Of a stretch of 64,000 nucleotides of DNA, positions 11,181 through 62,744 are shown piece by piece (the first letter of the stretch is position 1; the number at the start of each line of letters is the position of its first letter). The notes beneath the pieces were generated by a model. The model was given only the letters and a program-made list of their open reading frames with translations. It had not been told where the DNA came from and searched no databases. Made by a program: the position numbers and the translations under genes. This stretch comes from Novipirellula galeiformis (lineage in GTDB: Bacteria > Planctomycetota > Planctomycetia > Pirellulales > Pirellulaceae), in contig NZ_SJPT01000001.1 in the NCBI RefSeq assembly GCF_007860095.1, positions 1,068,212-1,132,211 of the forward strand, written 5' to 3'.

Positions 11181-11202
11181 GGGCTCGCTTCGGGCTCGCT
11201 TC
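11181..11202. repeat. 11-bp tandem duplication (intergenic)
   Basis: Two adjacent copies of gggctcgcttc lie in the 269-bp gap between the convergent TIGR03545 and trpE genes. It is one member of the window-wide set of short tandem duplications. Confidence 0.75.
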
Positions 11203-11377
11203 GCTTGTCAATAAGCTCCCCAACGTTGGAGACTGCTGGCTTAGCTGCATTGCGTCCACCCAGAGCGAGGGTGGGCTGGTTTTGCGATTTATCTAGGCAG
11301 TGCATTGCGACTAAGTCAGTAGTCTCCGGTGTGAGGGCGAGGTAATCGATCCGCGGGGGAAGCGTGTCGCGGCCAGC

Positions 11378-12880
11378 TTAGGAACCGACGCGGGCCACCG
11401 TGATTTCGATTGCCGAGATTAACGCTCGCGCCTTGTTCATGGTTTCCTCGTATTCCGCGTTCGGGTCGCTGTCGGCCACGACGCCGCAGCCGGCTTGGAC
11501 GTAGACGACTCCGTCTTTGGCGACCATCGTTCGCAATGCGATACAGGTATCCATGTTGCCGCGGTAATCAATGTAGCCCACCGCGCCGCCGTAAGGGCCT
11601 CGGCGATGCGGTTCGATCGAATCGATGACTTCCATTGCGCGAACTTTCGGTGCACCGGAAACGGTGCCCGCGGGCAAGACCGCCTTCAATGCGTCAAAGG
11701 CATCGAGTCCTTCGCGAAGTTTGCCTTGCACTTCGCTGCTGATGTGCATCACGTGCGAATAACGTTCGACGACCATCACTTCGGTCAATTCCACCGTACC
11801 AAATTGGGCCACGCGGCCGACATCGTTGCGTCCCAGGTCGACCAGCATCACATGCTCGGCAATTTCTTTGGGATCGGCGAGCAATTCTTTTTCGAGAGCC
11901 TTGTCCTCTTTTTCTGTTTTGCCGCGAGGTCGAGTTCCCGCTAATGGGCGGACGGTGACGACATTGTCAGCGACTCGGCACATGATTTCGGGCGAACACC
12001 CAACCAGGATGCAATCGGATGTACGGACATAGAACATGAACGGGCTGGGATTGACCACTCGCAGTGAGCGATAAATCTCGAACGGATCGACGTCCGTTTT
12101 GACGCTCAACCGTTGGCTGGGGACGACCTGGAAAATATCGCCAGCTCGAATGTATTCCACACAATCGAGTACCGCTTGCCCAAATGATTCACGCGTGAAA
12201 TTGGATTCGATGTTCAAGGGTGGCGACGGTTTGTCGGTCGTCAATTCGTCTGGCGTATGCGCGGTCGGCTGAGAGAGCTTCGCGATCGTTTGGTCAATCT
12301 GCTCTGCCGCTTGTGCGAACGCGGCCTGGGATTGCGCTTGGTCACCGACGTCGCGGCAATCAGCTAGCGAGACGACCGTGATTGTTTTGTCGACGTGATC
12401 AAAGACACATAGGGTGTGATAGAAGGCGAAATCTAGATCGGGTAGATCGCGATCATCGAGCGGCGCATTGGGCAGCTTTTCGACATAGCGAACCACGTCG
12501 TAGCCGGCGTAGCCGATCGCACCGCCAACGAACGGCGGTAAACCGGGGACATCCGCAACACGGTACTTGACGTGCGAGCGGAATGTTTCGAGCGGGTCGG
12601 CGGACTGTAACTGTTCGGTTTTACCGCTGAGTTGATCGGAAATCGTGACGGTGTTGCCGTGGGCTGCGAATCGTTTGATCGGCCCGGAGGCGAGGAAACT
12701 GTAGCGGCCAACTTTCTCGCCACCAATCACGCTTTCAAACAGACAAGCGGGGCTGCCATCGTCTAAAAGTCGAAACGCAGTAACGGGAGTTAACGAGTCG
12801 CTCAATAAACGCCGATACACCGGAACAAAGTCATGTTGGATCGAGAGCGCATCGAAGTCGGCTGATTGAGGGGTTAACAT
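11378..12880 (-). CDS. trpE: Anthranilate synthase component I
   Basis: This 500-residue chorismate-utilising enzyme converts chorismate plus ammonia to anthranilate, the first step of tryptophan synthesis. The N-terminal domain carries an FES...GRYSF segment matching the LLES tryptophan-binding region of TrpE, so feedback inhibition is likely. The C-terminal chorismate-binding domain has [56 protein letters not shown] and [15 protein letters not shown] 12880 is chosen because the frame upstream encodes a low-quality extension from 13039. A run of seven C (coding strand) sits about 20 nt before it. No trpG/D/C follows; the glutaminase partner could be the PabA-like gene at 19.9-20.5 kb. Confidence 0.92.
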
Positions 12881-13075
12881 CGCGATCGACAATTTCTCTA
12901 GGGGGGGCGTTGGTGGGTTCAGGCTTCCGTAGGGATGCAAATACGCTCGCCAGCACACCCGACGGGTGAGGTCGTTACGTTGACACCGAAGGGGGCGGCG
13001 ATAGAATCCCTTTGACGTCCGATCCATTGGAAAACACACACTTTAGCGGCAGTCGCGGCAGCTAGGAATGACACG

Positions 13076-15914: not shown

Positions 15915-15942
15915 TTTCTATCCTTCGCGGTTTTGCAATTTG

Positions 15943-21086: not shown

Positions 21087-21520
21087 CGGTTGTCCTCCTT
21101 CACTCGCAGCGCAAAGTTGACGAGCTTTTGTTCCTGGGCGACGCGGATGACTTCTTGGACATCACCGGCTGCGGTGTCCTTGTGAGCGCGGATGACCACA
21201 TTGGCATCCTCTGCCGTTTTGCCTTCCGATTCGATCACGGTCAATTCGCGAAGCAAACCGACTCGTAGCGTTTCCACCGTGTAGTCGTCTCCACCGAGCA
21301 CGATTTCACCATCCATTGCCACGTGCAAGATGATGGGGAACTCGAGCGGGACTTCGGGGGGCTTCACTAATTGGCTATTAGGCAACACGACGCGATCGTT
21401 CGCTTCGGTTTGGGCAAAGTTGATCAATACCATAAAGAACGCGATCAACTGGAACGTCATGTCGATCATCGGCGTCAGGTCGCCTTCGGCCAAGTCGGGT
21501 TTTTTCGATTTGACACGCAT
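21083..21520 (-). CDS. ExbD/TolR-like biopolymer transport protein (first copy)
   Basis: This 145-residue protein has the ExbD layout: basic N-terminus, a helix with Asp20 in LTPMIDMTFQLIAFFMVLIN, and a periplasmic region containing a VILPNSQ-like stretch (RVVLPNSQ) and GGDDYTVETL. Its start directly abuts the stop of the ExbB-type gene, so the two are translated together. The sequence differs clearly from the following ExbD, suggesting a heteromeric ExbD dimer rather than a recent duplication (inference). Confidence 0.9.
   Translation of the reverse strand: MRVKSKKPDLAEGDLTPMIDMTFQLIAFFMVLINFAQTEANDRVVLPNSQLVKPPEVPLEFPIILHVAMDGEIVLGGDDYTVETLRVGLLRELTVIESEGKTAEDANVVIRAHKDTAAGDVQEVIRVAQEQKLVNFALRVKEDNR
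21094..21100 (-). promoter_or_regulatory. Strong ribosome binding site of second exbD
   Basis: AAGGAGG on the minus strand, seven bases before the ATG and inside the upstream exbD coding region. It is the best Shine-Dalgarno match I noticed in the window. Confidence 0.75.
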
Positions 21521-27419: not shown

Positions 27420-28895
27420 ATGAAAATCCCATCTCAATTTAACGAAGATAGCCTTTATAATCGCCCCAAACCTCGCGGTGAAACGGTGCAAGATTACCGC
27501 CGTTTGATCCGCCTCGGCATGGGGTTAGCCTTGGTCTTGGTGGTCATGCGTCAAGCGGCGAGCCCACGTCTGTATGAGCCCTTCTTTGGTGCGGTGCCGA
27601 ACCAGGGGCGGGTTGTTCAGGATCAGGTTCCGGTGGATGCCACACGCCCAGACCGCCGCACGGCCGCAAACCGTTCGGGCGATGGGGGGCCGGGCGATGA
27701 GAGGCCGGGCGAGGCGAAGATGGCGGTGCCGGCGTCGGCCATTTCAGCAGCGGATGTTTCGGCAGCAACGGACGAGGTCGCTCCGGAAATGTTGTCCGAT
27801 GCGAGCGTGATTGCGGCGATCATCCCTGAGAGCGAGCAACAACTCTGGCTGGCTTCTCTATTGCGGATACGACGCCAACAAGCGATTCCTCAATTCACGG
27901 TGCTTGAAACCGGTTGGACGGTTCCGTTAGCGGATCTTAGGCTGCCGGAGACGGAGGGATCGGAGCAAGGGGCTGAGGGCAATCGGTCTTCGCAGCGTCT
28001 GCAGGCATGGCGTGCTTTAATCGAGCAAATCGCTTCGGATCCAGCGAGTTTCGATTCCCGAGGCTTCGATTCCCGAGGTGAGGTTCAGCAGCAAGATTGG
28101 GAGCGGATGGATGCGTTGATTGCGGCGTTGGATGTCGCAGCGGCCCAACGCGTTGCGAAATCGGCGGTTTGGCAATCCAAGGATCGCGACGCGTTGTACC
28201 GCTACTTGGATCAGGCTCGCGATGCGGGCGTGGAGCAACGCTCGGCCGCTGCGCCACCGAGCGTACCTCAAGTCGGCGTACTGCCGTTACTTCAACAGCC
28301 CGAAGTTTATTTGGATAAAATGGTCGCGTTTTCGGGCAAGGTTGCCCGCGTCGAAAAGCATGCAGCCACCTCCAACGAGTTCGAAATTGTTGATTATTGG
28401 CATTTGTGGCTGCGTCCCCTTGATGGCGCCGATCGTCCGTTACTGGCGGTCGTCGGTGAGGTCCCTGCCTCAATCGCAAGTTTAATCTCCGCAACGAATT
28501 TGATTGACAATGGGCCCCCGTTATTGATCCAAGGGCGATTTCTAAAGCGGCTTGCGTATCGATCCGGCAAGGGAGCGGATTTAGCACCGGTCATTGTCGG
28601 TCGCGTTGTGATGGCGCCTGCGGCGATCGATTCCGGTTCGACTCCGGGAACGACCGATCTCGTTGCCCCCGAGGGCGTCTCGAGCCAGGTTTGGACCATG
28701 GTTGTGATCGCCGTGCTGATCGGAGTGGGGTTGGCTGGCGCGGTGATGTGGAGAACGACGGTGTCGGCAAAACGGAGTCGCCAGATTCGCAATACCAAGC
28801 GGAAGGATCCGAGCGATTTTTTGGAGCAGATCGGGCAATCAAACGGCGAGCATGACGCTCAATCCGTGCGTGATGAATCAAGAGAAAACAGATGA
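27420..28895 (+). CDS. Membrane protein of unknown function (first of a coupled pair)
   Basis: This 491-residue protein is anchored at both ends: a helix at ~30-45 (RLGMGLALVLVVMRQA) and one near the C-terminus (VWTMVVIAVLIGVGLAGAVM). A Ser/Gly/Ala-rich linker (~65-115) includes 15-bp repeats at 27676-27719. The periplasmic region includes a beta-rich module (PEVYLDKMVAFSGKVARVEK ... FEIVDYWHLWLRPLD) that looks OB-like. A similar module seems present in the next gene's product. A second pair of 15-bp copies lies at 28050-28079 (FDSRGFDSRG). I do not recognise the family. Confidence 0.7.
   Translation: MKIPSQFNEDSLYNRPKPRGETVQDYRRLIRLGMGLALVLVVMRQAASPRLYEPFFGAVPNQGRVVQDQVPVDATRPDRRTAANRSGDGGPGDERPGEAKMAVPASAISAADVSAATDEVAPEMLSDASVIAAIIPESEQQLWLASLLRIRRQQAIPQFTVLETGWTVPLADLRLPETEGSEQGAEGNRSSQRLQAWRALIEQIASDPASFDSRGFDSRGEVQQQDWERMDALIAALDVAAAQRVAKSAVWQSKDRDALYRYLDQARDAGVEQRSAAAPPSVPQVGVLPLLQQPEVYLDKMVAFSGKVARVEKHAATSNEFEIVDYWHLWLRPLDGADRPLLAVVGEVPASIASLISATNLIDNGPPLLIQGRFLKRLAYRSGKGADLAPVIVGRVVMAPAAIDSGSTPGTTDLVAPEGVSSQVWTMVVIAVLIGVGLAGAVMWRTTVSAKRSRQIRNTKRKDPSDFLEQIGQSNGEHDAQSVRDESRENR
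27676..27719 (+). repeat. 15-bp imperfect tandem repeat, about 3 copies
   Basis: Units starting cgggcgat at 27676, 27691 and 27706, in frame, encode a GDGGPGDERPGEAK stretch in the linker of the membrane protein. Confidence 0.65.
28050..28079 (+). repeat. 15-bp tandem duplication, 2 copies
   Basis: Two copies of ttcgattcccgagg(c/t), in frame, give FDSRG-FDSRG within the hypothetical membrane protein. Confidence 0.8.
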
Positions 28896-30391: not shown

Positions 30392-31447
<1,056 letters not shown>

Positions 31448-31663
31448 CAGAGCTTGCTAGCGTTGCGACGGAACTTGAAGGTTCTTTGGCTCAGGGATGT
31501 GCTTCAGCGTTGACACCTACGAGCGATTGCGCGTAGGTTTATGGCATCCATCTGACGCCGTAGCCTTGTCCGTGAAGTTGATGTTTGGCACGCATTTTTA
31601 GTGCGTGTCGCGAGATCACAGGATGACGTGGGGCGTGGGCCTTCCTCTTACATTCGGTTGGTT

Positions 31664-32599
31664 ATGAGTCGTTTTCATTCTTCGGCAATTTGGGGATCTT
31701 CCCAAGCAAAAGAAACCTCCCACGACACACCTCCAACGCCAGATTCAGGCGACCCTCCGCAACACGATTCGGTCGCACCTTCGGGAAACGCACCTTCGGG
31801 AAACGACACCGGTGGACTCTTTCACCCGTCATCGTGGCACGAAGCGTTGACCGAGTCGGATCAATTCAGTGGGGTTGAGAATCCGTTCGCTCCCTCCAAG
31901 GGGGTTGGTGCACAAACCGCGTTCTTTTTGCCACTGCATTATGAAGCCAATTACGAGTATCCCCTCGTGATTTGGTTGCACAGTGACGGCTTCAATGAGA
32001 ACCAAGTCACCCAAGTGATGCCTCACATCAGCCTGCGGAATTATCTTGCTGTGGGAGTGCGAGCGAGTTGTGCAACCGATTCATCAGGGCACTGTTACGA
32101 GTGGCGGACACGTCCGGGGGCGATCCAAACCGCTTATGAGAATGTCTTGCATGCGGTCGACCAGGCGGTGGAGCGTTTTTCGGTCAACCCGTCACGCATC
32201 GTGCTGGCGGGATACCAGAGCGGTGGCGCGATGGCGATGCGGATTGCGCTGCGTGATCCGGCGCGATTTGCGGGAGTGGTTTCGCTCGGCGCGCGGATGC
32301 CCCGCGGATGTCGATCGTTGGCGAATTTGTCCGAGGTGCGCTCGCGGCGGTTACCGATGCTGTGGCAATGGGCGACCGAAAGCTCCGATTTTGACGCTGC
32401 GGAGCTTGACCAAGATATGCGTAGCGCGATGATGATTCACGCTCAATTAGAAATCCGTCAATATCGTGATGATGACGAGATGAATACGGTCGCACTCGCG
32501 GACGTCAACGAATGGATCATGAATAATGTAGTGTCACGCTCCAATGGCCGTTCCAAAGATTCTTGGGCAACCTCGCCCACTCAGTTTTCTTCGAATTAA
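31664..32599 (+). CDS. Alpha/beta-hydrolase-fold protein, catalytic triad apparently lost
   Basis: This protein of about 311 residues has a polar, Ser/Pro-rich N-terminus followed by an esterase/PHB-depolymerase-like fold (YPLVIWLHSDGFNENQ, VNPSRIVLAGYQSGGAMAM). Against the usual nucleophile elbow G-F-S-Q-G-G, the sequence reads G-Y-Q-S-G-G, so the nucleophile position is Gln. The strand that normally carries the acid reads LPMLWQWATESSD instead of the GxxDxxV pattern. Where the catalytic His is expected (YPGxGHxI), it reads YRDDDEMNTV. All three triad positions therefore seem replaced. A non-catalytic binding protein is likely. A 15-bp duplication lies at 31775-31804. Confidence 0.75.
   Translation: MSRFHSSAIWGSSQAKETSHDTPPTPDSGDPPQHDSVAPSGNAPSGNDTGGLFHPSSWHEALTESDQFSGVENPFAPSKGVGAQTAFFLPLHYEANYEYPLVIWLHSDGFNENQVTQVMPHISLRNYLAVGVRASCATDSSGHCYEWRTRPGAIQTAYENVLHAVDQAVERFSVNPSRIVLAGYQSGGAMAMRIALRDPARFAGVVSLGARMPRGCRSLANLSEVRSRRLPMLWQWATESSDFDAAELDQDMRSAMMIHAQLEIRQYRDDDEMNTVALADVNEWIMNNVVSRSNGRSKDSWATSPTQFSSN
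31775..31804 (+). repeat. 15-bp perfect tandem duplication, 2 copies
   Basis: Two adjacent copies of gcaccttcgggaaac, in frame, in the disordered N-terminal segment of the hydrolase-fold protein. Confidence 0.85.
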
Positions 32600-33750: not shown

Positions 33751-33812
33751 GGCGTGCACTCTCGGTTGCGGTGTTTAGCGGTGTGGGCGTTTCGGAGCGT
33801 TTCTCTACCGTC

Positions 33813-33846
33813 TTCAAAAACTTAAGCTCGATTCAAAAACTTAAGC
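33813..33846. repeat. 15-bp direct repeat at 19-bp spacing
   Basis: Two copies of ttcaaaaacttaagc, at 33813 and 33832, lie in the 168-bp gap upstream of pyrB. They could be a tandem-duplication product or a pair of regulator sites. Confidence 0.7.
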
Positions 33847-33918
33847 CAGGGTGCTCGCGGAAACGCAATAAATCTCGTACCCTCGACGCCACGATCATTT
33901 CCGAATTTCCTTCACTGT

Positions 33919-38910: not shown

Positions 38911-39067
38911 TTTGTGGCGTCAAAGCCGGTCCAAGTGGCTCGTTGGGCTCACTCCCTCGGCTTGCTCCCTCGGCTTACTGAGTGACCGCCGTTTTCCGGA
39001 ATATGCTGTGCAGCCTGCTTCGTTTTCGGGTAGGGCTTCTAACCGATTCCGACGTTGCGGTCGAGTG

Positions 39068-41396: not shown

Positions 41397-42421
41397 TTTT
41401 GATCCAGATGCGCTTGAAGCGTCGTCCAACAGGTCGCGAGTTGCGTGCTTGCAAGGATCAACCTTCGCGGAGTTTAGGGGCATTGCGGTTGTTTGAATGC
41501 CAGTCTCGCGTGAAGGCGACCACACAAAAGGTCGTTGGAACGCTCCGCTTGAAAGCGGGAAATCGAAGAACACCGCACGAATTCAAAGGAAAAAAGCCTA
41601 CCAGGAGTACGGCGGTGACATGCCCTGGGAAGGCGAAACAATAAGTGGGGGGGGGTGGATGGGCGATCGCCGGATCGCTACAGAAAGGGAACTAGACGAA
41701 TGATCCGAAGATCCGTGCCTGAGAAGCAGGCGTCGCTGCGGTTTCCATGGGACCTAGTCTCGTAGACAAGCCCAGTGGAATCACAGAGTGTCGAGTGCGA
41801 CTTAAAATCCATTCAGTATTAAGTTAGGAGACGTGCGATTGAGAGGCCAATCGTGAATTGAAAACGAAGTGTTGGGGATGAGGCGACCATCGCAATGCGA
41901 AAGCGGCAAGCAACCTCGGTAACTTGTGTTTGATCGATCGCCCTCGTAATCTCAAGCCAGTAGCCGTTTGGCGAGCGTAACTGCTTTTTCCTCAAGCAAG
42001 CCACTGAGAGGGACGTGATCAAGCGTCCATTGGGAGAGGTGGGCAGCTAAACTTGTATTGAGCTAATCAATTCAATTTAGCGCCGACCTTCATAACGCTC
42101 ACAAATATAACTCCGGATTTCGGGAAGTCAATAGCTGCTGTGAGTTGGCGGCCGGTTGGGAAAACCCGGGGGGAATGGGAGGCCTTGGTCGGATGGCTGC
42201 CGATTGTGGAGTTCGTGGGAAATGATCGCGGGGAATCACGCGGTAGCCGGCCCCGAAGTTTTTATGTGACGGTGCTCCAAGTTTGTCCCCACTTGGGGCG
42301 ATTTCGTGTTTCAGAAGGCGAGGAATTCGGGCGGCACGCCTTCCAGCCGTTGACGCGGCGTAATGTCAGACGGCGGAGAGACTGTGTCAGACGGCGGAGA
42401 GACCGCTCCTTAGGCAGCCGG
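41397..42421. other. 1-kb region without a supported gene
   Basis: I see only short, basic, non-convincing frames here. The region holds the rho promoter, a run of nine G at 41647-41655 and a 19-bp direct repeat at 42364-42403. An unannotated small RNA could fit but nothing shows it. Confidence 0.5.
42364..42403. repeat. 19-bp direct repeat, period 21
   Basis: Two perfect copies of tgtcagacggcggagagac, starting at 42364 and 42385, lie just past the 3' end of the diguanylate cyclase gene. Confidence 0.85.
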
Positions 42422-44257
42422 TCAACTTCCCGATGCGACGACCTGAGGAGGCGAACTCGGCTCCGCTTTGAGCGGCAAACCGGACGGGGGCGGTGCCGCG
42501 GAGTTCGGGGCCGCTGCGATCGCGGGTGATTTCGTTTTCGCTGCGCTGGTCGCTTGGTCGGGGACGTTGGACGCGGGGACAGCGGACTCGGGGACAGCGG
42601 ACTCGGGGACAGCGGACTCGGGGACAGCGGACTCGGGGACAGCGGACTCGGGGACAGCGGACTCGGTAGTCTGCTTCAGATCCGACTCGGGGGAGGTCGC
42701 ATTGTCGCGGTTGGCAGGTGCGGGCGAGACAGGTGCGGGCGAGACAGGTGCGGGCGAGACAGGTGCGGGCGAGACAGGTGCGGGCGAGACAGGTGCGGGC
42801 GAGACAGGTGCGGGCGTTCGCGCAATCGCCTCGTCGAGTGTTTCGTCTGGTTCGACCGCGATCACGGAAATATCGAGCTTCGATGACTCGTGGGTGCTTG
42901 GCTCTCCGAATTGCAGCGATTCCGCCGAGGAGCGGATTTGTTTGACTTTTTCCTGCGCCGTGTCGTCATTGATTCCAGGCATGCAAACCAGCAGGGTCGA
43001 GTCGTCCTCGGCTCCGATGCGATCGACGCTTCGCATCGTTGCGCGGACAATTTGAAGCAGCGTGCGCATGGAGCCGGCTGCGGGAGCCCCGCTGACGTGT
43101 AGCTGCATGACCTGGGTCGGCAAGCCAATCGATTTGGATCGTTCCTGAAGTTCGGCAAACGAGCCGGTCAATGCCGCACGGTCCGGCAAGCTTGAGAACG
43201 CCCCGTGGTTAGGGCGGGCGGCTGGCACCCGCGGTTGCGGTTTGGGGGCGGCCGTTTGGTTGGCGGGAGGGATGGCTACGGTGGGCAAGGCTTCATCGAT
43301 ATCGGGAATCGATGATGGTTCATCGCCAAGGGTGATCAATTCGGGTGTGTTCACGTCCATCCAATGCCCGCAATTTCGTCCTTGATTCTTAGAGTGGTAC
43401 ATCGCCGAGTCTGCTCTCTCGATCCACTGTTCAATCGATTCGGCCTCGAGTGGTTCGGCCAGTCCAATGCTGGCGGTGACGGCAAGTTGTTTACCCTCGA
43501 ATTCAACGAGGTGTTGTCCGATTGCGGCACGCGCCGATTCGACAATCTGTTTGGATTCCTCGACCGTGTATCCATCGATAATCGCGGCGAATTCTTCGCC
43601 ACCAAAACGGGCGACGATACCGTAGGACTTCAAGCGTGCGTGCAGCATGTTGGCGACCACTTTGAGCACTTCGTCACCGGCGCGATGGCCGTGTTCGTCG
43701 TTGAATTTCTTAAAGTGGTCGACGTCAAGCAGCATCAGCGTGCCCGCGCGCCCAGGGCCGAGTGCATGGCGTCGCGCCAAGTGCTCGTCAAACGCTCCGC
43801 GGTTGGAAACGCGGGTCAAGGCGTCGGTCTGGGCCCTTCGTTCGGCAGATTCAAGTTGGTCGGCTTGTTCCGAGATGCGGCTTTGTGCCGTCTGCAGCTT
43901 GCTTTGCATGGTTTGATTTGCGTCGATCAAGCGATTGACGACCTCACCCAGTTCGTCGGCCGAAAAGGAGGTTTCCGACGATAACGCATCGCTGACCGCC
44001 TGGACGCTGCTTTGATGTAAGTCCACATCCATTGCCATCGTGATGGCATATTCACGGAGTCGGTCCGCTGCAGCGGCAAGCCGCTCGTATTCCCCTTTGA
44101 CATGGTCGAGTTCCGACCGGTCAATCATCGATCTGTCGTCGTTTAGGTCGGCGGGGTCCACGCCCCAGCCAATCGCATGCATGATCCATCCGCAAACGAG
44201 TCCGACGCCGGCGCAGCTAAGTGCGATCGCTAAATCGAGAAACATCATCAGGGCCAT
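42422..44257 (-). CDS. Diguanylate cyclase with a second, degenerate GGDEF domain and repeat tail
   Basis: This 611-residue protein has an N-terminal membrane helix (~5-28), a helical linker (~50-140) and an intact GGDEF domain with GGEEF at 219-223 and DALTRVSNRGAFDE upstream, so c-di-GMP synthesis is expected. The RxxD inhibitory site is not seen at its usual place. Residues ~355-480 resemble a second GGDEF with DRIGAEDDSTLLVCMPG in place of RxGGDEF, thus inactive. The tail carries seven APVSP-type and six ESAVP-type pentapeptides encoded by 15-bp tandem repeats, and ends Pro/Ala-rich. The tail may be a flexible, length-variable spacer. Confidence 0.9.
   Translation of the reverse strand: MALMMFLDLAIALSCAGVGLVCGWIMHAIGWGVDPADLNDDRSMIDRSELDHVKGEYERLAAAADRLREYAITMAMDVDLHQSSVQAVSDALSSETSFSADELGEVVNRLIDANQTMQSKLQTAQSRISEQADQLESAERRAQTDALTRVSNRGAFDEHLARRHALGPGRAGTLMLLDVDHFKKFNDEHGHRAGDEVLKVVANMLHARLKSYGIVARFGGEEFAAIIDGYTVEESKQIVESARAAIGQHLVEFEGKQLAVTASIGLAEPLEAESIEQWIERADSAMYHSKNQGRNCGHWMDVNTPELITLGDEPSSIPDIDEALPTVAIPPANQTAAPKPQPRVPAARPNHGAFSSLPDRAALTGSFAELQERSKSIGLPTQVMQLHVSGAPAAGSMRTLLQIVRATMRSVDRIGAEDDSTLLVCMPGINDDTAQEKVKQIRSSAESLQFGEPSTHESSKLDISVIAVEPDETLDEAIARTPAPVSPAPVSPAPVSPAPVSPAPVSPAPVSPAPANRDNATSPESDLKQTTESAVPESAVPESAVPESAVPESAVPESAVPASNVPDQATSAAKTKSPAIAAAPNSAAPPPSGLPLKAEPSSPPQVVASGS
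42575..42664 (-). repeat. 15-bp tandem repeat, 6 perfect copies (ESAVP array)
   Basis: Six identical units ggggacagcggactc (plus strand) lie head to tail, in frame with the diguanylate cyclase gene on the minus strand. Identity between copies implies recent expansion or gene conversion. Confidence 0.95.
42715..42816 (-). repeat. 15-bp tandem repeat, 6 full copies plus a partial one (APVSP array)
   Basis: Units caggtgcgggcgaga (plus strand) are perfectly repeated from 42715, with a partial seventh ending at 42816. The array is distinct in sequence from the neighbouring 42575 array but has the same unit length. Confidence 0.95.
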
Positions 44258-44495: not shown

Positions 44496-44521
44496 CGGCA
44501 TCGGGCAACGGCATCGGGCAA
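44496..44521. repeat. 13-bp perfect tandem duplication
   Basis: Two adjacent copies of cggcatcgggcaa in non-coding DNA. Confidence 0.85.
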
Positions 44522-45268: not shown

Positions 45269-45325
45269 GTCTCTCGTTGAGCTTCGCGTCTCTCGTTGAG
45301 CTTCGCGTCTCTCGTTGAGCTTCGC
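45269..45325. repeat. 19-bp tandem repeat, 3 perfect copies
   Basis: Three identical units gtctctcgttgagcttcgc lie in non-coding DNA, followed by a diverged fourth (gatgttctgggttgagctccgc). The period is not a multiple of three and no gene is involved. Confidence 0.92.
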
Positions 45326-45399
45326 GATGTTCTGGGTTGAGCTCCGCAGGCGATTGCCACGCGGAGCATGAACGCGTTTCGATCGGTTTTACCCGCGAA

Positions 45400-48131: not shown

Positions 48132-48192
48132 CGGACGCTGTGAAATTGCGGACGCTGTGAAATTACGGACATCGAAATTGCGGACATCATCC
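48132..48192. repeat. Compound 17/15-bp tandem repeat
   Basis: Two copies of cggacgctgtgaaatt(g/a) (period 17) are followed by cggacatcgaaattg and cggacatcat (period 15). The block lies between the ABC permease and ATPase genes and touches the ATPase 3' end. Confidence 0.8.
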
Positions 48193-51616: not shown

Positions 51617-51764
51617 CAAGCGGGTGTCCCGTTTAGGGTGCTGCTTGATCACCCGATTCGAACGCGAGCATCGATGCCAGTCGCGTGTTCGCAAACTCGC
51701 GTTCTTGATCCTTCACGCTGGAATGGCGTTGAGATTCGGAATGGCGGTGGGATTCGGATTTACC

Positions 51765-51794
51765 TTCTCTCGCTCGACCTTCTCTCGCTCGACC
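51765..51794. repeat. 15-bp perfect tandem duplication (intergenic)
   Basis: Two adjacent copies of ttctctcgctcgacc in the 236-bp gap between convergent genes. Confidence 0.85.
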
Positions 51795-54177: not shown

Positions 54178-54813
54178 GTGGATCGTCGCACCGCCTTTAC
54201 CCTGCTTGAATTGCTGCTTTCGATTTCCTTGATCGCGGCGATCGCGGCGGTGGTGATTCCGAATATTACATCGATGCTGGGGGACCAGCGTCTGTCGCGT
54301 GCCGCAGAGCAATTGCAAATCGAGATGACTCGTTTGCGAATTGATGCGATGCGGCAAGGACGCGTGTTGATGCTCGAGGCTACCGTCGATGCCAATACGT
54401 TGACGACGCGGCCCTTCTTTTCGATCAGCGATGCGGTGGAAACGGCCGATAGGGCCGGCGGGGTATCCAGTTTAATGCAGGGGGCCGATCAAGCATCCGC
54501 AGTCGTCATGCCGTTGCCCACCGATGCGGAGGTGGAAACCACGATCGAGTTGCCCGAGGCGGTGGTCATTGAATCGGTCCAGGTCGTTTCGTCGGCTCGA
54601 TCGTTGACGCTCGCCCAGCAGGGAGGCGATCCCAGCGTGGGATCCGCTGGTTCGCAACCAACGCAAGCGGTGTGGTTCTATCCCGATGGAACCACTAGCA
54701 CCGCAGCCATCGTGTTGATTCATCCCGAAGTGGGACGCATCACGGTTCAACTTCGCGGGATCACCGGAGAGGTGACCGTGGGAGACATGACGGTGGCGGA
54801 GGGAATACGATGA
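54178..54813 (+). CDS. GspH-like minor pseudopilin
   Basis: This protein of about 211 residues has a short leader and prepilin helix (FTLLELLLSISLIAAIAAVV). The residue before the Phe is Ala (RRTA-F), not the usual Gly at -1. Leaders of this type are cleaved less well in studied prepilins. The globular part carries LSRAAEQLQIEMTRLRIDAMR, then beta strands and a Gly/Thr-rich FYPDGTTST end, as in GspH. GTG 54178 is preferred because of GGGAGA upstream; ATG 54136 would overlap gspG. The stop overlaps the next start (ATGA). Confidence 0.82.
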   Translation: MDRRTAFTLLELLLSISLIAAIAAVVIPNITSMLGDQRLSRAAEQLQIEMTRLRIDAMRQGRVLMLEATVDANTLTTRPFFSISDAVETADRAGGVSSLMQGADQASAVVMPLPTDAEVETTIELPEAVVIESVQVVSSARSLTLAQQGGDPSVGSAGSQPTQAVWFYPDGTTSTAAIVLIHPEVGRITVQLRGITGEVTVGDMTVAEGIR

Positions 54814-55403
54814 GTCGATCTTTGAGTCGATCTTCCGGGCGCTCGGACGCACCTGGGCGCTCGGACGTACCCGGGCACTCGGACGCACCTGGGCGCTCGG
54901 ACGCACCTGGGCACTCGGACGCACCGAAAAAAGGCACAGGATTGTTGAAACGCAGAGGGTTTTCGCTGCTGGAAATTCTGCTTTCGATCGCGATTCTCGG
55001 CGGCTCGTTGGCGGTTTTAAGCCAGTTGGCGTTGACCGGAACCGATGCGGCTCGCGAAGCACGCGAGTTATCGATGGCACAAATGATCTGTCAAACGAAG
55101 CTATCGGAGATCCTACTTCAGAATGTCTCCCCGCAAAGCGTTCCGAACTCCTCCGTGGAATCAAGCGACAGCGGTTCGATGGTACCGTTTTTCTACTCCG
55201 TCGATGTTCAACCTGCGTCGTTGGACGGCTTGTTGGCGGTACGTGTGACGGTCGAGGCGAGCGATCCCGATGGAGGCCCTGCTCTGGCGACCTACTCGTT
55301 AACGCGATGGATGATCGATCCCGCGCTAGGGCTCGAAGCAGCCGAGGCCGCCGAGCAAGCCGCCAAAGATGCCGAAGCATCCACTTCTCAGGAGGCGGGG
55401 TGA
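54810..55403 (+). CDS. GspI-like minor pseudopilin with a repeat-expanded leader
   Basis: This 197-residue protein has a prepilin motif (KRRG-FSLLEILLSIAILGG, then SLAVLSQL) about 48 residues in. The leader before it is unusually long: 12-bp and 18-bp tandem repeats encode SLSRS and then five GRSDAPG/GHSDAPG units. The mature part (~145 residues) has AREARELSMAQMICQTKLSEIL and a beta-rich body as in GspI, and an Ala/Glu-rich end. The leader repeats would be cut off by the prepilin peptidase, so their number may drift freely. Overlaps genes at both ends. Confidence 0.82.
   Translation: MSRSLSRSSGRSDAPGRSDVPGHSDAPGRSDAPGHSDAPKKGTGLLKRRGFSLLEILLSIAILGGSLAVLSQLALTGTDAAREARELSMAQMICQTKLSEILLQNVSPQSVPNSSVESSDSGSMVPFFYSVDVQPASLDGLLAVRVTVEASDPDGGPALATYSLTRWMIDPALGLEAAEAAEQAAKDAEASTSQEAG
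54811..54834 (+). repeat. 12-bp tandem duplication
   Basis: Two copies of tgagtcgatctt at the extreme 5' end of the GspI-like gene, starting at the second base of its ATG. Confidence 0.8.
54840..54925 (+). repeat. 18-bp tandem repeat, about 5 copies
   Basis: Units of the form c(g/a)ctcggacg(c/t)acc(t/c)ggg start at 54840, 54858, 54876, 54894 and 54912 (last partial). They encode hexapeptides R/H-S-D-A/V-P-G in the pseudopilin leader. Confidence 0.9.
55390..55395 (+). promoter_or_regulatory. Ribosome binding site of the GspJ-like gene
   Basis: AGGAGG seven bases before ATG 55403. It settles the start against the upstream in-frame codon at 55307. Confidence 0.7.
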
Positions 55404-58128: not shown

Positions 58129-58141
58129 CGCCAAAATAAAT

Positions 58142-59764
58142 ATGCCTAAAAAGTTAGCTATCGATTGGGACGAAACGGAGCTGCGTTTCGTTGCGGCTCA
58201 GTGCACCGGGACGCAAGTCACGATCACCGATGCCGCAGTCATTCCAATGCTGCCCTCGGGGATCTTTGAGACGCTGCGCAAAGCGATCTCCGAGCATGGT
58301 CTCGAGAAAACGGAAACCTTGGTCGCAATCGGACGTGGCAAAGCGGAATTGCGCGAGTTGCAATTCCCGCCCGTGCCCGACGAAGAGTTACCGGATATCG
58401 TTCGCTTTCAAGCGATTCGCACGTTCGCCTCAGCTGGCGAAAGTGCAACGATCGACTACCTCGTTACCCATCGCACTTCGGCCAATGTGAACGCCATCGT
58501 GGCCGCCGTGGCTCCCCCCAAATTAGAAGAGGTCAAAGAGGTCTGTGCCGCTGCCTCGTTGCCGGTCAATCGAATTACCCTACGTCCTCTGTCCGCTGCG
58601 GCGTTCTTTCTCACCCGTTCCAACGCATTGGCAACCGAGGGCGATGTCGTCTTAATCGATCTGCTTTCGCATGACGCTGAGATTGTGGTGTCGCGCGACA
58701 ACAAGGTGATCTTTGTGCGTACCGTGCGGATGCCGACGGACGCATCGGCGCGGCCAAGAGCACTCGTTAATGAACTCAAACGAAGCTTGTTGGCGTGTGG
58801 TAGCAAGTCGCCTGAGAAAATTGTGTTGTGGGGCCGAGAAGCGGTTCACCGCAGTGATGTTGCCCTCCTTTCCGAAGCGATCGACACGCCGGTGGAAGTC
58901 GCCAACCCCTTTGATTTGGTCGACGTCGATGCGAAGCTCAAATCGCAGTTGCCTGATCATGTCGGACGTCTCGCCCCCTTGGTAGGCTTGTTGGTTTGTG
59001 ATGAAACTCATGCGGGACGTCTGATTGACTTTTTACATCCGCGCGAGCGAGTCGAAGAAAAAAAGGACCACCGACGCACTGCGTTGTTTGTCGGAGTGCC
59101 CGTGGCCGCGGTCCTGCTATTGGGCTACTTCGGTTATCACAAGCTGAGTAAGCTTGACGCCGAAATCGAGCGGCTTAGCAAAGCCAACGCGGCAATGAAA
59201 ATGCCTGTGGAGGAAGCGGAGCAATTCATTGCCGAAACCGAAAAAGTAGACCAGTTTCTTGACGCCGATGCGATTTGGATTGACGAGATTCGCACGCTGG
59301 CAACGAAGCTGCCCCCAGCCGAAGAAGTGATCTTAAAGTCGATCGTGGCGACCAGCGATATTCGATCGGGCGTGAGCACGGTCGTGCTCAGCGGTTCGGC
59401 CACCCACCCCAGTGTGATCGAGAAACTCGAAGCGTCGATTCGAGATGAAAATCATAGCGTCACCAGCGAAGGTGCCAGCGAGCAAGACGCCAAAAACGCC
59501 TATCGCTGGGTCTTTACCGAGAAAATAGCCATCCCGCCGCACTACGCTCGCGTCCAACGTTATGCGGGGATCGAAGCCGCATTGGCCGCCACTGAAGCGG
59601 CGTCCGAAGATCCGATGGAAAACGCTGCGGAGGATACGGTGGAGGATTCCGATCCGGCTTCGAAGCCAGCGGCTCTCGAATCGAATATTCCCAAGGAATC
59701 AGATATCCCCAATGAATCGGATGCCGAGACGTCCGTGGTCCCCTCGGCCGAGGTGCAATCATGA
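58142..59764 (+). CDS. GspL/PilM-like assembly protein
   Basis: This 540-residue protein begins PKKLAIDWDETELRFVAA, an actin/PilM-like ATPase-fold start. The cytoplasmic part (~1-300) includes VVLIDLLSHDAEIVVSRDNK. One transmembrane helix follows (~318-336, ALFVGVPVAAVLLLGYFGYH), then a periplasmic coiled coil (DAEIERLSKANAAMKMPVEE) and a ferredoxin-like domain, as in GspL or a PilM-PilN fusion. The last ~60 residues are acidic and low-complexity, with an 18-bp repeat at 59678-59728. It overlaps the GspM-like gene by ATGA. It should link the secretion ATPase to the pseudopilus. Confidence 0.85.
   Translation: MPKKLAIDWDETELRFVAAQCTGTQVTITDAAVIPMLPSGIFETLRKAISEHGLEKTETLVAIGRGKAELRELQFPPVPDEELPDIVRFQAIRTFASAGESATIDYLVTHRTSANVNAIVAAVAPPKLEEVKEVCAAASLPVNRITLRPLSAAAFFLTRSNALATEGDVVLIDLLSHDAEIVVSRDNKVIFVRTVRMPTDASARPRALVNELKRSLLACGSKSPEKIVLWGREAVHRSDVALLSEAIDTPVEVANPFDLVDVDAKLKSQLPDHVGRLAPLVGLLVCDETHAGRLIDFLHPRERVEEKKDHRRTALFVGVPVAAVLLLGYFGYHKLSKLDAEIERLSKANAAMKMPVEEAEQFIAETEKVDQFLDADAIWIDEIRTLATKLPPAEEVILKSIVATSDIRSGVSTVVLSGSATHPSVIEKLEASIRDENHSVTSEGASEQDAKNAYRWVFTEKIAIPPHYARVQRYAGIEAALAATEAASEDPMENAAEDTVEDSDPASKPAALESNIPKESDIPNESDAETSVVPSAEVQS
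59678..59728 (+). repeat. 18-bp imperfect tandem repeat, nearly 3 copies
   Basis: Units starting gaatc at 59678, 59696 and 59714 encode ESNIPK-ESDIPN-ESDAE near the C-terminus of the GspL-like protein. Confidence 0.65.
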
Positions 59765-60984
59765 ACCAACGCGAACGTTTCTTGGCGATTGCGATCGCAG
59801 GTCTTGTAGGGGTGGTTGCCATTCAATGGGGGCTCAGTCGATACCAAACCGCCCTGCGCAGCCGGACCACGCGGATCGCCGCTTTGCAGAACGAGAAGCT
59901 CAAACTCGAAGACCGCTTGCTCGATGGCGCGTATGCCGACCGTCAATTGGGTGAGTACTTGTCGCGATCGTTGCCCGGCGATCCCGAGCGAGCACATAGC
60001 GATTACCAAAGTTGGTTGCTCGACGCGGTTGAGCAAAATGGGGTAACCAACCCGCGAGTCAATCGCACAAACATGCTTCCGGTGGGCGACCTTTATCAAC
60101 GGCTTTCTTATAGCATTGATGGGCGAACCGATCTGCCGAAATTGATTGACTTTTTGCACGCGTTTTATGCCAAAGATTATTTGCATCGAATGAGTAAGCT
60201 TGCAATCACACCGGCGCGTGACGAAGCGAGTCGTTTTGATGTGAAGATCAGTGTCGATGTGATTGCACTTTCCGCAGCGGCCGAGAATGCCAAGGCACCG
60301 CAGGGGACATCGTGGCGCGTCGAACCGCTTGTCGCTGCCTATCGCGAACCGATTTTGAACCGCAACTTTTTCGAGCCTCCCAACAAGGCGCCCCAATTCA
60401 CGGGCAAGCCGGTGGTCGATGCGGTTGTCGGCAAAGAATCGACCACCCCGCTGACCTTCAAGGACCCCGAAGGGCACAAGCTTCGCTTTGAGCTGATCGA
60501 ATCATCACCCGACTTTGTGCGGCTCGATGAGACGACCGGGACGCTGACGCTCAACTCCGACACGAAGCAAGAGTTTGAAGTCCAGGTGCGCGTGACCGAT
60601 GACGGCTATCCCAACCGGACCACGGAGCAGAAATTGTTGGTCAAAGTGGGCGATCCGCCCCCGCCGCCGGAACCGCCCGCGGTGAAACCGATGTTTGATG
60701 ACTCGACGCAGACGGTGTTGACCGCATTGGTCCAAGGACGCGACGATTGGACGGCATGGATGAATGTTCGCACCAAGGGTAAAACACTCAAATTGCGGGT
60801 CGATGACGAGTTCGAGATCGGTAGCCTCAAAGGAAAAGTGATTGAGGTGACTCCCCGATTTGTGTTGCTTGAGATCGATGGCCGCCAATTTGAACTGAAA
60901 CCCGCCGGGGTGCTCTCGGACGCAGCCAAGCGATCCGAATCGACCCCAGCTGAACCTTCCTCAGCTGAACCGACAATCGAGTGA
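59761..60984 (+). CDS. GspM-like protein fused to a cadherin-like and a GspC/PilP-like domain
   Basis: This 407-residue protein has an N-terminal helix (RFLAIAIAGLVGVVAIQWGL), a short coiled coil (RTTRIAALQNEKLKLEDRLL) and a GspM/PilO-like ferredoxin region (~60-175). Then comes a cadherin/Ig-like module (~220-295, LTFKDPEGHKLRFELIE ... VRVTDDGYPNRT) and a Pro-rich linker (PPPPPEPP). The C-terminal ~60 residues (VNVRTKGKTLKLRVDDEFEI-like strands, GKVIEVTPRFVLLEIDGRQF) resemble the HR domain of GspC or PilP, which contacts the secretin. Combining these in one chain is unusual. A 15-bp near-repeat encodes AEPSSAEPT at 60947-60974. Confidence 0.75.
   Translation: MNQRERFLAIAIAGLVGVVAIQWGLSRYQTALRSRTTRIAALQNEKLKLEDRLLDGAYADRQLGEYLSRSLPGDPERAHSDYQSWLLDAVEQNGVTNPRVNRTNMLPVGDLYQRLSYSIDGRTDLPKLIDFLHAFYAKDYLHRMSKLAITPARDEASRFDVKISVDVIALSAAAENAKAPQGTSWRVEPLVAAYREPILNRNFFEPPNKAPQFTGKPVVDAVVGKESTTPLTFKDPEGHKLRFELIESSPDFVRLDETTGTLTLNSDTKQEFEVQVRVTDDGYPNRTTEQKLLVKVGDPPPPPEPPAVKPMFDDSTQTVLTALVQGRDDWTAWMNVRTKGKTLKLRVDDEFEIGSLKGKVIEVTPRFVLLEIDGRQFELKPAGVLSDAAKRSESTPAEPSSAEPTIE
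60947..60974 (+). repeat. 15-bp partial tandem duplication
   Basis: cagctgaacc recurs at 60947 and 60962 with period 15, in frame, at the 3' end of the GspM-like gene. Confidence 0.55.
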
Positions 60985-61748
60985 TGACCGTTTTGAGCTC
61001 GCATGCCTCCGCCATCCGGTGCGACAACGTGACCGTCGAGTTCGACGACGGCACGCGCGCGGTGGACCGGATCGATGCCGAGTTTCCAGCCGGGAAAATC
61101 ACCTCGCTGATTGGCCCGAGCGGCTGTGGGAAAACGACGTTGCTGCGATTGATCGCGGGGCTTCAACGGCCGACGTCGGGCGGTGTGCGTTTGGATCCTC
61201 CCGCAGCCCAACCTGCGGGAGAGGTTGCGTTTGTGTTCCAGCAACCCTCCCTGCTCCCTTGGCGAGACGCGTTAGGGAATGTCTTGTTGCCGCTCGAACT
61301 AGTGTCACGCGACACGGGGGCACAGCAGCGAGAGAGAGCGGCGGCGGTGTTGCAGACGGTGGGGCTGGGCGATGCCATGGGCCGGATGCCGCATGAGCTT
61401 TCCGGAGGGATGAAAATGCGGGTTTCGCTGGCCCGGGCCCTGGTCACCGAGCCTCGCGTTTTGCTGATGGACGAGCCGTTTGCGGCGCTCGACGACATGT
61501 TACGCAACGCACTCGGGCAACTGTTGTTACAACTTTGGAGTGATTTCTCGCTGACCGTCGTGATGGTGACTCACAATATCGCGGAGTCCTGTTTGTTGTC
61601 CCATCAAATCCAAGTCATGCAACAGGGCTCGATCGCACAGATGATTGAGAACCCATTGCCGTGGCCCCGCAACGCAGCCCTTCGTCGTACGGCGGAGTTT
61701 GGAATGTTTTATGGGGTGATTAGTGATTCGTTGAGGGAGCCATCGTGA
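60984..61748 (+). CDS. ABC transporter ATP-binding protein (nitrate/sulfonate/taurine type)
   Basis: This protein of about 254 residues has Walker A GPSGCGKTTLLRLIAG, Q-loop VFQQPSLLPWRDALGN, signature LSGGMKMRVSLARALV and Walker B VLLMDEPFAALDDM, as in SsuB/TauB/ThiZ. ATG 60984 shares its A with the GspM-like stop (TGATG); GTG 60981 is possible. Its permease partner overlaps by 4 nt. Substrate is not readable: sulfonate, nitrate and pyrimidine precursors are all known for this group. Its coupling to the end of a secretion operon is odd and may be chance. Confidence 0.9.
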   Translation: MTVLSSHASAIRCDNVTVEFDDGTRAVDRIDAEFPAGKITSLIGPSGCGKTTLLRLIAGLQRPTSGGVRLDPPAAQPAGEVAFVFQQPSLLPWRDALGNVLLPLELVSRDTGAQQRERAAAVLQTVGLGDAMGRMPHELSGGMKMRVSLARALVTEPRVLLMDEPFAALDDMLRNALGQLLLQLWSDFSLTVVMVTHNIAESCLLSHQIQVMQQGSIAQMIENPLPWPRNAALRRTAEFGMFYGVISDSLREPS

Positions 61749-62542
61749 ACGGTTTCCGCTGCTGGAAAACGATGAGCTCCACTGCGGCGCCTATTGTCGT
61801 AGGCGTTTTGATCCTAGTTGCGCTATGGAAGGGGGTGATTGGGTTCTTTGAATTGCCTCCGATTCTATTGCCGGCACCGCGTCAAGTTTTGGCAACCGCG
61901 TTCGAGGAAAGAGAATCGCTAGTTCGTGGGACGTGGGTTACGGGGGTGGCGGCGACGGTGGGGTTGTTTACGGCGGTCGTGTTAGGATCGGTAGTCGCCG
62001 TTGCTTTTAGTCTATCGATGGCGATTCGCAAGGCGTTCTTTCCCTACGTGGTGTTCTTGCAAACCGTTCCCATCGTCGCGATTGCGCCGCTGCTGATTAC
62101 GTGGAGCGGTTATCAATTTCGCACCGTCGTGATCGTGACCGTGATCGTTTGCTTGTTTCCGATCGTCAATAGTGTGACCGAGGGATTGCTGGCGATGCAG
62201 CGAGATTTGAACGATCTGTTCCGTTTGTACGGTGCATCGAGAATTCAGCGACTGTTGAAGTTGCAACTGCCAACGGCGATTCCCTATTTAGTGCTCGGTA
62301 CGAAAACGAGTAGCGGACTTGCTGTGATTGGGGCTATCGTTGCCGAGTTTTTTGTCGGCAACGGCTCGAATTACGACGGGCTCGGAACGCTGATGACGGG
62401 ATGGCAAGGGTTTCAACGAACCGACGCGCTGATCGCGGCAATCTTTGCCTCCACGATGTTAGGGTTATTGCTTTTCGGAGTCGTCAATCTACTATCGGCA
62501 ACCGTGTTGCGTCGTTGGACGTCCGGCGATCGGGATCGCTAA
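61745..62542 (+). CDS. ABC transporter permease (SsuC/TauC/ThiX type)
   Basis: This 265-residue permease has six hydrophobic segments, beginning APIVVGVLILVALWKGVIGF. The family loop LFRLYGASRIQRLLKLQLPTAIPYL, the EAA contact with the ATPase, lies at ~158-182, preceded by FPIVNSVTEGL. It starts with GTG in the stop of the ATPase gene (GTGA). No periplasmic substrate-binding protein is adjacent on either side, so the transporter is incomplete here. Confidence 0.9.
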   Translation: MNGFRCWKTMSSTAAPIVVGVLILVALWKGVIGFFELPPILLPAPRQVLATAFEERESLVRGTWVTGVAATVGLFTAVVLGSVVAVAFSLSMAIRKAFFPYVVFLQTVPIVAIAPLLITWSGYQFRTVVIVTVIVCLFPIVNSVTEGLLAMQRDLNDLFRLYGASRIQRLLKLQLPTAIPYLVLGTKTSSGLAVIGAIVAEFFVGNGSNYDGLGTLMTGWQGFQRTDALIAAIFASTMLGLLLFGVVNLLSATVLRRWTSGDRDR

Positions 62543-62693
62543 CGACTTCATTCGCTCTGCTTTTCATGCGCCGTCGGTTCGCTTACGCTTTGATGTGGTT
62601 GCGACTTGATGGTCCTGTGTCAATTGCTTGGAGCGTGATCGGTCCGATCCAACGCTTGGTTCGGACTGTGAGGCTGAATAAAGCCCATCAGCG

Positions 62694-62744
62694 ATCGAAC
62701 GTAGACAAATCGAACGTAGACAAATCGAACGTAGACAAATCGAA
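62694..62744. repeat. 15-bp tandem repeat, 3 perfect copies plus a partial one, upstream of pntA
   Basis: Units atcgaacgtagacaa start at 62694, 62709 and 62724, with a partial fourth (atcgaa). The array ends about 22 bp before the pntA ATG. It lies in the 5' leader or promoter, so copy number could affect expression. Confidence 0.92.

What the first reader, a model, noticed from the sequence alone, without database searches (positions are those of the whole stretch)
11181..62744. Window-wide scatter of short tandem duplications, unit length mostly 15 bp, in coding and non-coding DNA
By reading I found at least 17 loci with 2-7 adjacent copies of an 11-21 bp unit: 11181, 27676, 28050, 31775, 33813, 42364, 42575, 42715, 44496, 45269, 48132, 51765, 54811, 54840, 59678, 60947 and 62694. 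The unit sequences are unrelated, so this is not one repeat family but a recurrent process. Periods of 15 (and 18) dominate inside genes, as selection for frame would give, yet 15-bp periods also occur in non-coding DNA (51765, 62694), where frame cannot explain them. Copies are often identical, so events look recent. A polymerase-slippage or break-repair habit producing ~15-bp duplications is a possible cause.
Basis: partly seen in the sequence, partly recalled or inferred. Interest (0 to 1): 0.72.

Follow-up and report, generated by a model that had tools for sequence, protein, structure and literature searches.

The report
Genome-wide habit of ~15-base tandem duplications
This planctomycete bacterium's genome is strewn with short stretches, mostly 12 to 19 bases long, copied right next to themselves, several times more densely than in the relatives sampled, which points to a mutation process with a preferred size.

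Summary
All 17 listed loci are there (9 with two perfect adjacent copies). The window has 9 perfect tandem duplications of unit >=11 bp against a mean of 0.02 in 50 Markov shuffles. In 1.6 Mb of the same 7.4-Mb genome (a Pirellulaceae bacterium near Novipirellula maiorica) there are 163 perfect runs, 142 arrays, in 139 unit groups. Outside genes the unit length is a hump: 94 of 107 at 12-19 bp, mean 15.1; only 5 at 10-11. Inside genes 50 of 52 are multiples of three. So '15' is the in-frame value at the centre of a size preference. Copies of graded divergence occur, so the process is long-running. Noncoding density is 4 to 8 times that of the relatives sampled and 2.3 times that of a gammaproteobacterial sample, yet both show the same hump. 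Microhomology is above chance, but 32 of 55 clean events have 0-1 bp, which argues against simple slippage at birth. I favour re-joining of a ~15-nt displaced or filled-in strand, then slippage that adds copies; this step is inferred. PolA nuclease, MutS, ExoVII and RecJ are present; Ku was not found.

The parts
11181..11203 (.). 11-bp unit x 2.1, perfect, between genes
27676..27712 (+). 15-bp unit x 2.5, imperfect, inside gene 27420-28895
28048..28078 (+). 15-bp unit x 2, inside gene 27420-28895
31433..31477 (+). 21-bp unit x 2.1 (TRF 79% matches) across the 3' end of gene 30404-31447; the alignment to same-genus genome G002 lacks 21 bases here
31774..31810 (.). 15-bp unit x 2.1 perfect (2.4 copies by TRF), between genes by the gene caller (inside ORF 31601-32599 if its upstream start is used)
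33812..33849 (.). 19-bp unit x 2 with 3 mismatches, between genes
38952..38976 (.).
   Evidence: gene positions
42364..42405 (.). 21-bp unit x 2 with 1 mismatch, between genes
42558..42666 (-). 15-bp unit x 7.3 in the GGDEF protein gene 42422-44257, coding a run of PESAV pentapeptides in its C-terminal tail
42715..42816 (-). 15-bp unit x 6.8 perfect in the same gene, coding a run of PAPVS pentapeptides
44496..44521 (.). 13-bp unit x 2 perfect, between genes
45269..45326 (.). 19-bp unit x 3.05 perfect, between genes
48132..48188 (.). 17-bp and 15-bp overlapping units, imperfect, between genes (last two bases touch gene 48187-49773)
51720..51758 (.).
51762..51794 (.). 15-bp unit x 2.2 perfect, same convergent intergenic stretch
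54811..54834 (+). 12-bp unit x 2 perfect at the end of gene 54178-54813
54837..54925 (+). 18-bp unit x 4.9 (90%), upstream of, or in the first codons of, a gene with a match just under the cut-off to N_methyl (21.0 bits, cut-off 21.2); not seen in the aligned stretches of G002 and R. maiorica
59685..59722 (+). 18-bp unit x 2.1 imperfect, inside gene 58142-59764
60941..60970 (+). 15-bp unit x 2 with 3 mismatches near the end of gene 59761-60984; bases missing in the alignments to G002 and R. maiorica
62694..62744 (.). 15-bp unit x 3.4 perfect, between genes; not repeated in the aligned stretch of R. maiorica

Best explanation
A long-running, genome-wide mutational process makes tandem duplications with a preferred unit of about 15 nt (12-19), and its products are unusually dense in this Novipirellula-like lineage. 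Step 1, birth: a ~15-nt stretch is copied once beside itself. I infer (about 35% likely as a molecular statement) that a strand of this patch length, displaced as a flap or exposed as a staggered end, is re-synthesised and joined back instead of trimmed, with 3-9 bp of microhomology helping in roughly a quarter to a third of cases. Step 2, growth: existing pairs gain or lose whole copies by ordinary slippage (3 to 10 copies seen; the mechanism is inferred). Step 3, filter: measured against the noncoding density, nearly every out-of-frame event and about two thirds of in-frame ones are missing from genes, so 15, 18 and 21 are what remain. Shown: the excess, the size hump, the frame filter, mixed ages, the density difference between genomes, limited microhomology. 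Inferred: the enzyme-level cause, and that the high density reflects a high rate of gain and not a low rate of loss.
For: Nearly chance-free excess. Noncoding size hump: 94 of 107 at 12-19; mean 15.1, sd 2.35 for the 102 with unit <=23; 5 events at 10-11 against 37 at 14-15, p = 2e-7 if equal. Coding: 50 of 52 multiples of three against 34 of 107 noncoding, p = 5e-16; in-frame survival about 0.32 and out-of-frame about 0.006 of the noncoding density. Noncoding perfect density per 100 kb: own 37.8, G002 8.6 (6 events), G001 0 (in 12 kb), G013+G008 5.6 (3), G020+G022+G029+G030 4.9 (3), gammaproteobacteria 16.6 (20); relatives outside the genus pooled 7.3-fold lower, p = 2e-10. Same hump in relatives (10 events of 12, units 34 and 42 left out) and gammaproteobacteria (19 of 20, unit 29 left out), Kolmogorov-Smirnov p = 0.99 and 0.35. 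Pairs with 1, 2 and 3 mismatches in similar excess. Microhomology >=3 bp in 16 of 55 clean two-copy events against 3.4 +/- 1.8 by chance, but 32 of 55 have 0-1 bp. No hairpin preference and no convincing cut-site motif.
Against: The molecular cause was not seen. The flap nuclease domain of PolA is present in all 15 genomes searched, own included, so a lost flap nuclease does not explain the density. Ku is not found, so joining would need another route. Density is not rate: a lower loss of copies would look alike. Inside genes, imperfect pairs (<=2 mismatches) are as dense in G002 (9.8 per 100 kb) and G001 (7.6) as in the own genome (8.5), so for older pairs the rise is genus-wide; and imperfect noncoding pairs are as dense in the gammaproteobacteria (32.4) as in G002 (28.5). 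Microhomology can be under-counted when an edge base has mutated. Outside genes there is also an excess at 7-9 bp (28, 21 and 12 against 16.5, 4.1 and 0.9 expected), partly from a few recurrent heptamer and octamer arrays, so the spectrum may have two humps.
Confidence: 0.55

Rival explanations
1. Ordinary replication slippage between short direct repeats that already lay about 15 bp apart (ABA becomes ABABA), with no special ruler.
For: Microhomology is above chance (16 of 55 with >=3 bp against 3.4), arrays have grown to 3-10 copies, and the same ABA to ABABA form, with a 16-bp unit as one example, is described for flap-nuclease-deficient yeast (PMC5677150, section 11).
Against: Slippage should favour shorter units (established view, recalled), yet units of 10-11 bp number 5 and those of 14-15 bp 37 outside genes. 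23 of 55 clean events have no microhomology (chance 30.4 +/- 4.0). Units fold slightly less than random intergenic stretches of the same length (-0.23 against -0.48 +/- 0.11 kcal/mol), and units with 10 flanking bases fold as random ones do.
Confidence: 0.25
2. Staggered double-strand breaks filled in and joined end to end, as in mammalian small tandem duplications made by non-homologous end joining.
For: A fixed stagger would give a narrow size spread and near-chance microhomology, as in more than half of the events here; fill-in at 3' overhangs makes such duplications in mammalian cells (PMC8355091, passages).
Against: No Ku was found in this genome (of 14 control genomes the search found it in Bacillus subtilis). 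Microhomology is above chance. No convincing cut-site motif.
Confidence: 0.15
3. The duplications are favoured by selection, as regulatory or protein-linker variation, and the mutation rate is ordinary.
For: Some arrays code for repeats in a Pro/Ala-rich tail and copy number variation there could be useful.
Against: Perfect runs are about 9.6-fold less dense in genes than outside and densest between convergent genes (30 of 94 events in 15.6% of the intergenic bases, p = 8e-5), where one expects least regulation; units are mostly unrelated.
Confidence: 0.03
4. Sequencing or assembly artefact.
For: The assembly is a draft of 30 contigs with gaps; one poly-C run counted twice at first lay against a gap (left out from then on).
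Against: 50 of 52 coding events keep the frame, which an artefact would not do; copies of graded divergence exist; same-genus genomes also show more imperfect copies and more arrays of >=4 copies than the other relatives.
Confidence: 0.02

Closest known systems
Short-unit bacterial satellites / VNTRs (survey PMC6749651: Rhodopirellula baltica 29 satellites, 4.06 per Mb)
   Same: Scattered tandem arrays with short units, many with units that are multiples of three; a relative, Rhodopirellula baltica, is already in that survey's table.
   Different: 80 of 96 noncoding events of unit 12-25 have only two copies, which the survey (at least four) does not count; a size hump near 15 bp outside genes and a density difference between relatives are not in the passages I read. 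By TRF 45 of 460 arrays have >=4 copies, 28 per Mb, but with a looser method than the survey's.
Flap-type duplications of rad27/FEN1-deficient yeast (PMC5677150)
   Same: ABA to ABABA tandem duplications, one example with a 16-bp unit, and further copy number change at the same site.
   Different: There B spans 1-91 bp and repeats A of 1-21 bp flank the events; here the size is narrow, 32 of 55 clean events have 0-1 bp of flanking repeat, and the PolA 5' nuclease domain is present.
Small tandem duplications by fill-in and end joining in mammalian cells (PMC8355091)
   Same: Tandem duplication without need of flanking homology, with size depending on the overhang and where fill-in starts.
   Different: There they are strongly reduced without Ku80 (11.7% against 60.9% of events); no Ku found here.

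Membership tests
Bacterial satellites / VNTRs | Adjacent near-identical copies of a unit of 10 bp or more | tested here: met
Bacterial satellites / VNTRs | At least four copies (survey definition) | tested here: not met
   Met by 45 of 460 TRF arrays only; 80 of 96 noncoding events of unit 12-25 have two copies
Bacterial satellites / VNTRs | Copy number varies between strains of the species | not testable with these tools
   No second strain of this species was met: the genus search covered three genomes, the own and two other species
Slippage-born duplications (ABA to ABABA) | Flanking direct repeat of a few bp in most events | tested here: not met
   32 of 55 clean two-copy noncoding events have 0-1 bp; 16 of 55 have >=3 bp, above chance
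Slippage-born duplications (ABA to ABABA) | Frequency falls steadily with unit length | tested here: not met
   5 events at 10-11 bp against 37 at 14-15 bp
Flap-nuclease-deficiency duplications | Flap nuclease missing or damaged | tested here: not met
   PF02739 present in 15 of 15 genomes, own included; activity not testable
Ku-dependent end-joining duplications | Ku encoded | tested here: not met
   PF02735: 0 matches in the own genome; among 14 controls found in B. subtilis
Dispersed repeat / mobile element family | Units related in sequence across loci | tested here: not met
   163 runs fall in 139 groups by shared 10-mers, 123 of them single; one group of four arrays at separate places shares a short dispersed sequence

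The most novel reading that the evidence does not exclude
Bacteria share a duplication process with a physical ruler of about 15 nt, seen here because its products are unusually dense in one planctomycete genus; the ruler is the length of a repair or priming patch (such as a primer or an excised oligonucleotide), so these genomes record, as fossil duplications, how often such patches are mis-joined.
Probability: 0.3. Interest if true: 0.8.

Novelty: new variant of a known kind. Interest (0 to 1): 0.52.

Why it matters
Short tandem duplications are how new repeats, and thus new variable loci and protein linkers, are born. Simple slippage predicts that short units should be commonest; a spectrum that nearly starts at 12 and peaks near 15 outside genes points to a first step with a fixed length. 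A lineage with a several-fold higher density may be a natural mutator for this class, so comparing its close strains could identify the responsible enzyme. It also means that 15-bp repeats in genes need no protein-level explanation: they can be the in-frame members of a general spectrum.

Tried and rejected
Lost repair gene: PolA 5' nuclease domain (15 of 15 genomes), MutS ATPase domain (14 of 15, own included), ExoVII large subunit (15 of 15) and RecJ (15 of 15) are present in the own genome, so none of these explains the density. A second MutS-like gene of the own genome seemed to hold two stops; reading the locus showed that the gene ends normally and the match ran past its stop, so that lead was dropped.

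Hairpin-driven slippage: units are, if anything, less foldable than random intergenic stretches, and units with flanks are no different. Cut-site motif: of 16 positions around the duplication ends one (-4, C in 33 of 70 ends) stood out (chi-square 16.2), not convincing after correction.

A ruler in unit plus microhomology, or unit minus microhomology, was tried on 51 noncoding two-copy events: the unit length alone has the smallest spread (sd 2.5 against 5.0 and 4.1).

Gene ends: the excess between convergent genes is the same for perfect and for older pairs (ratio to divergent 2.64 and 2.68) and goes the same way, not significantly (p = 0.19 and 0.24), in gammaproteobacteria and relatives. 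I could not separate a mutational cause at gene ends from selection.

Orthologous sites: 21 window stretches were aligned to G002 and, where held, R. maiorica; two (42364, 42558) had no match. A gain in the own lineage is clear at 31433 and 60947 and likely at 54837 and 62694; at 21265 and 26149 (weak TRF rows) the similarity is shared with G002, so these are old or chance; the other sites are too diverged to tell.

Literature: ten searches listed no paper whose title or abstract start speaks of a ~15-bp duplication preference in bacteria; lists were capped at 8-20 rows and the library is open-access only. Seen: PMC6749651 outline, abstract and passages; PMC4807772 passages (it gives tandem repeat content per planctomycete genome); PMC5677150 passages and section 11; PMC8355091 passages. 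Recalled only, not checked: the 12-13 nt UvrABC patch, bacterial primer lengths, the decline of slippage with unit length, and earlier work on paired-nick duplications in plants.
Full report
WHAT WAS CLAIMED.

All 17 loci are there; 9 have two perfect adjacent copies and the others 1-3 mismatches. TRF lists 38 rows at score >=30. Perfect duplications of unit >=11 bp number 9 in the window against a mean of 0.02 and a maximum of 1 in 50 Markov shuffles. By a simple dicodon gene caller of mine, 10 of the 17 are outside genes, 6 inside and 1 at an edge; start sites are uncertain for two of them.

IT IS GENOME-WIDE. The window is G000:C1:1068212-1132211 of a 7.40-Mb, 30-contig genome. I read 1.6 Mb of the 7.4 Mb, in five contigs; the stretches were chosen by position (one of them around the window) and not by content. 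They hold 163 perfect runs of unit >=11 bp, 10.2 per 100 kb. Runs of one array were counted apart; merging runs under 60 bp apart leaves 142 arrays, and the units fall into 139 groups by shared 10-mers, 123 of them single. A fifth-order Markov control of the first 1.2 Mb gives 0.67 at 11 bp, 0.33 at 13 bp and none at other lengths of 12 bp or more. Two entries were one poly-C run beside a gap; single-base units were left out from then on.

SIZE. Outside genes (107 runs in 283 kb) the units are 11: 4, 12: 9, 13: 12, 14: 20, 15: 17, 16: 15, 17: 10, 18: 4, 19: 7, 20: 2, 21: 1, then six stragglers from 23 to 41 (three of them at 24). The mean is 15.1 and the sd 2.35 for the 102 with unit <=23. Units of 10 bp occur once there. 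Inside genes 50 of 52 are multiples of three and 32 of the 52 are 15, against 34 of 107 multiples of three outside (p = 5e-16). Four runs across gene edges were left out of this split. If the noncoding density is taken as neutral, about 32% of in-frame and 0.6% of out-of-frame duplications survive in genes; several coding arrays count as more than one run, so the in-frame figure is if anything high. A result against a single hump is the extra at 7-9 bp outside genes (28, 21 and 12 against 16.5, 4.1 and 0.9); several of these are arrays of a few recurrent heptamers and octamers, which looks like a different thing, but I did not prove it.

AGE. Adjacent pairs of unit 12-19 bp outside genes number 109, 89, 94 and 185 with no, one, two and three mismatches, against about 8 (a gap effect), 1, 11 and 84 in shuffles (my sums of the rows). 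So the process is long-running and not one recent burst. About 3.3% of the intergenic bases examined lie in such pairs.

WHO ELSE HAS IT. Perfect noncoding duplications per 100 kb: own 37.8; same-genus G002 8.6 (6 in 70 kb); same-genus G001, from five contigs, none in 12 kb; G013 and G008 together 5.6; G020, G022, G029 and G030 together 4.9; 77 gammaproteobacterial loci 16.6 (20 in 120 kb). The own genome exceeds each of them (p from 0.013 to 1e-6). Small extra samples: R. maiorica L129 0 in 14 kb, R. europaea 1 in 21 kb, Aporhodopirellula 0 in 21 kb, E. coli 0 in 50 kb, coding and noncoding together. Imperfect pairs tell a partly different story: with <=2 mismatches the noncoding densities are own 86.7, G001 50.8, G002 28.5, other relatives 14.8 and 13.0, gammaproteobacteria 32.4, and inside genes own 8.5, G001 7.6, G002 9.8, other relatives 1.7 and 3.8, gammaproteobacteria 2.1. 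By TRF, arrays of >=4 copies are 28, 25 and 31 per Mb in own, G002 and G001 (45, 7 and 2 arrays), 1.25 in the six other relatives (1 array) and 8.5 in the gammaproteobacteria (11). So older pairs and arrays are raised in the whole genus, and fresh perfect pairs outside genes most of all in this genome. The size hump is shared: 10 events in relatives and 19 in gammaproteobacteria do not differ from the own spectrum (three units of 29, 34 and 42 bp left out), and imperfect pairs peak at 14-15 in relatives and 14-16 in gammaproteobacteria, though with mismatch limits that grow with unit length.

JUNCTIONS. In the raw set of 90 two-copy events flanking matches were much commoner than chance, but part of this came from decayed third copies. 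After removing 33 of 96 noncoding events with a diverged extra copy, and setting aside 8 with three or more copies, 55 two-copy events remained: 23 with no microhomology (chance 30.4 +/- 4.0), 9 with one base, 7 with two and 16 with three or more (chance 3.4 +/- 1.8; never above 8 in 400 trials). So microhomology helps, but more than half of the events have at most one base of it. Events with two or more bases tend to be 14-17 bp (18 of 23) and those with none or one 12-14 bp (19 of 32), a small difference that I leave open. There is no hairpin preference and no convincing motif.

PLACE. Intergenic events are densest between convergent genes (30 of 94 in 15.6% of the bases, p = 8e-5; 30 against 13.8 expected after matching for length); tandem and divergent gene pairs have equal densities overall, and in tandem pairs the events lie somewhat nearer the upstream gene's end (44 events, mean position 0.42). 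Young and older pairs show the same bias. Relatives and gammaproteobacteria lean the same way, not significantly. Less constraint at gene ends, or a process tied to transcription ends, could both do this.

CAUSE. Ku was not found. PolA's 5' nuclease domain, MutS, ExoVII and RecJ are present. The near-minimum at 12 and the spread of 2.4 bp argue for a first step with a fixed patch length. I therefore favour re-joining of a displaced or filled-in strand of about 15 nt, followed by slippage that changes copy number. The comparison with flap-type duplications in yeast lacking Rad27 and with fill-in duplications in mammalian cells is one of working principle; neither membership test is met. That the patch is a primer or a repair oligonucleotide is a guess from recalled lengths. 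A high density could also come from slow loss of copies, which I could not test.

VERDICT. A true, quantitatively strong and genome-wide feature. Short satellites in a relative were already on record (R. baltica, PMC6749651). New, as far as the ten searches show, are the ~15-bp spectrum outside genes, its frame-filtered image inside genes, its thinner presence in distant bacteria and its high density in this lineage.

Noticed in passing
window 42422-44257 (-): GGDEF (diguanylate cyclase) protein whose C-terminal tail carries two pentapeptide arrays, PAPVS and PESAV, each from a nearly perfect or perfect 15-bp array.
   Followed up: partly
L242:1716-1822: A 14-bp unit repeated 7.6 times (98%) begins five bases after the stop codon of a MutS-like gene (G000:C4).
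   Followed up: partly
own genome sample, C1_0-400k 62326 and 200849, C3 443, C5 46183: Four arrays share a short dispersed sequence of the GCTCTGTCCC type, which also flanks other arrays.
   Followed up: no
own genome sample, intergenic: Recurrent heptamer (ACTCAAG, up to 14.6 copies) and related octamer arrays (GGGAGACA type, both orientations) at several places.
   Followed up: no
own genome sample, C1_0-400k 59129: A perfect 13-bp unit repeated ten times outside genes, the longest perfect array of unit >=11 bp listed in the first 1.2 Mb.
   Followed up: no
intergenic DNA of the 1.6-Mb sample: Tandem duplications are about 2.6 times denser between convergent than between divergent genes, in young and older pairs alike.
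   Followed up: partly
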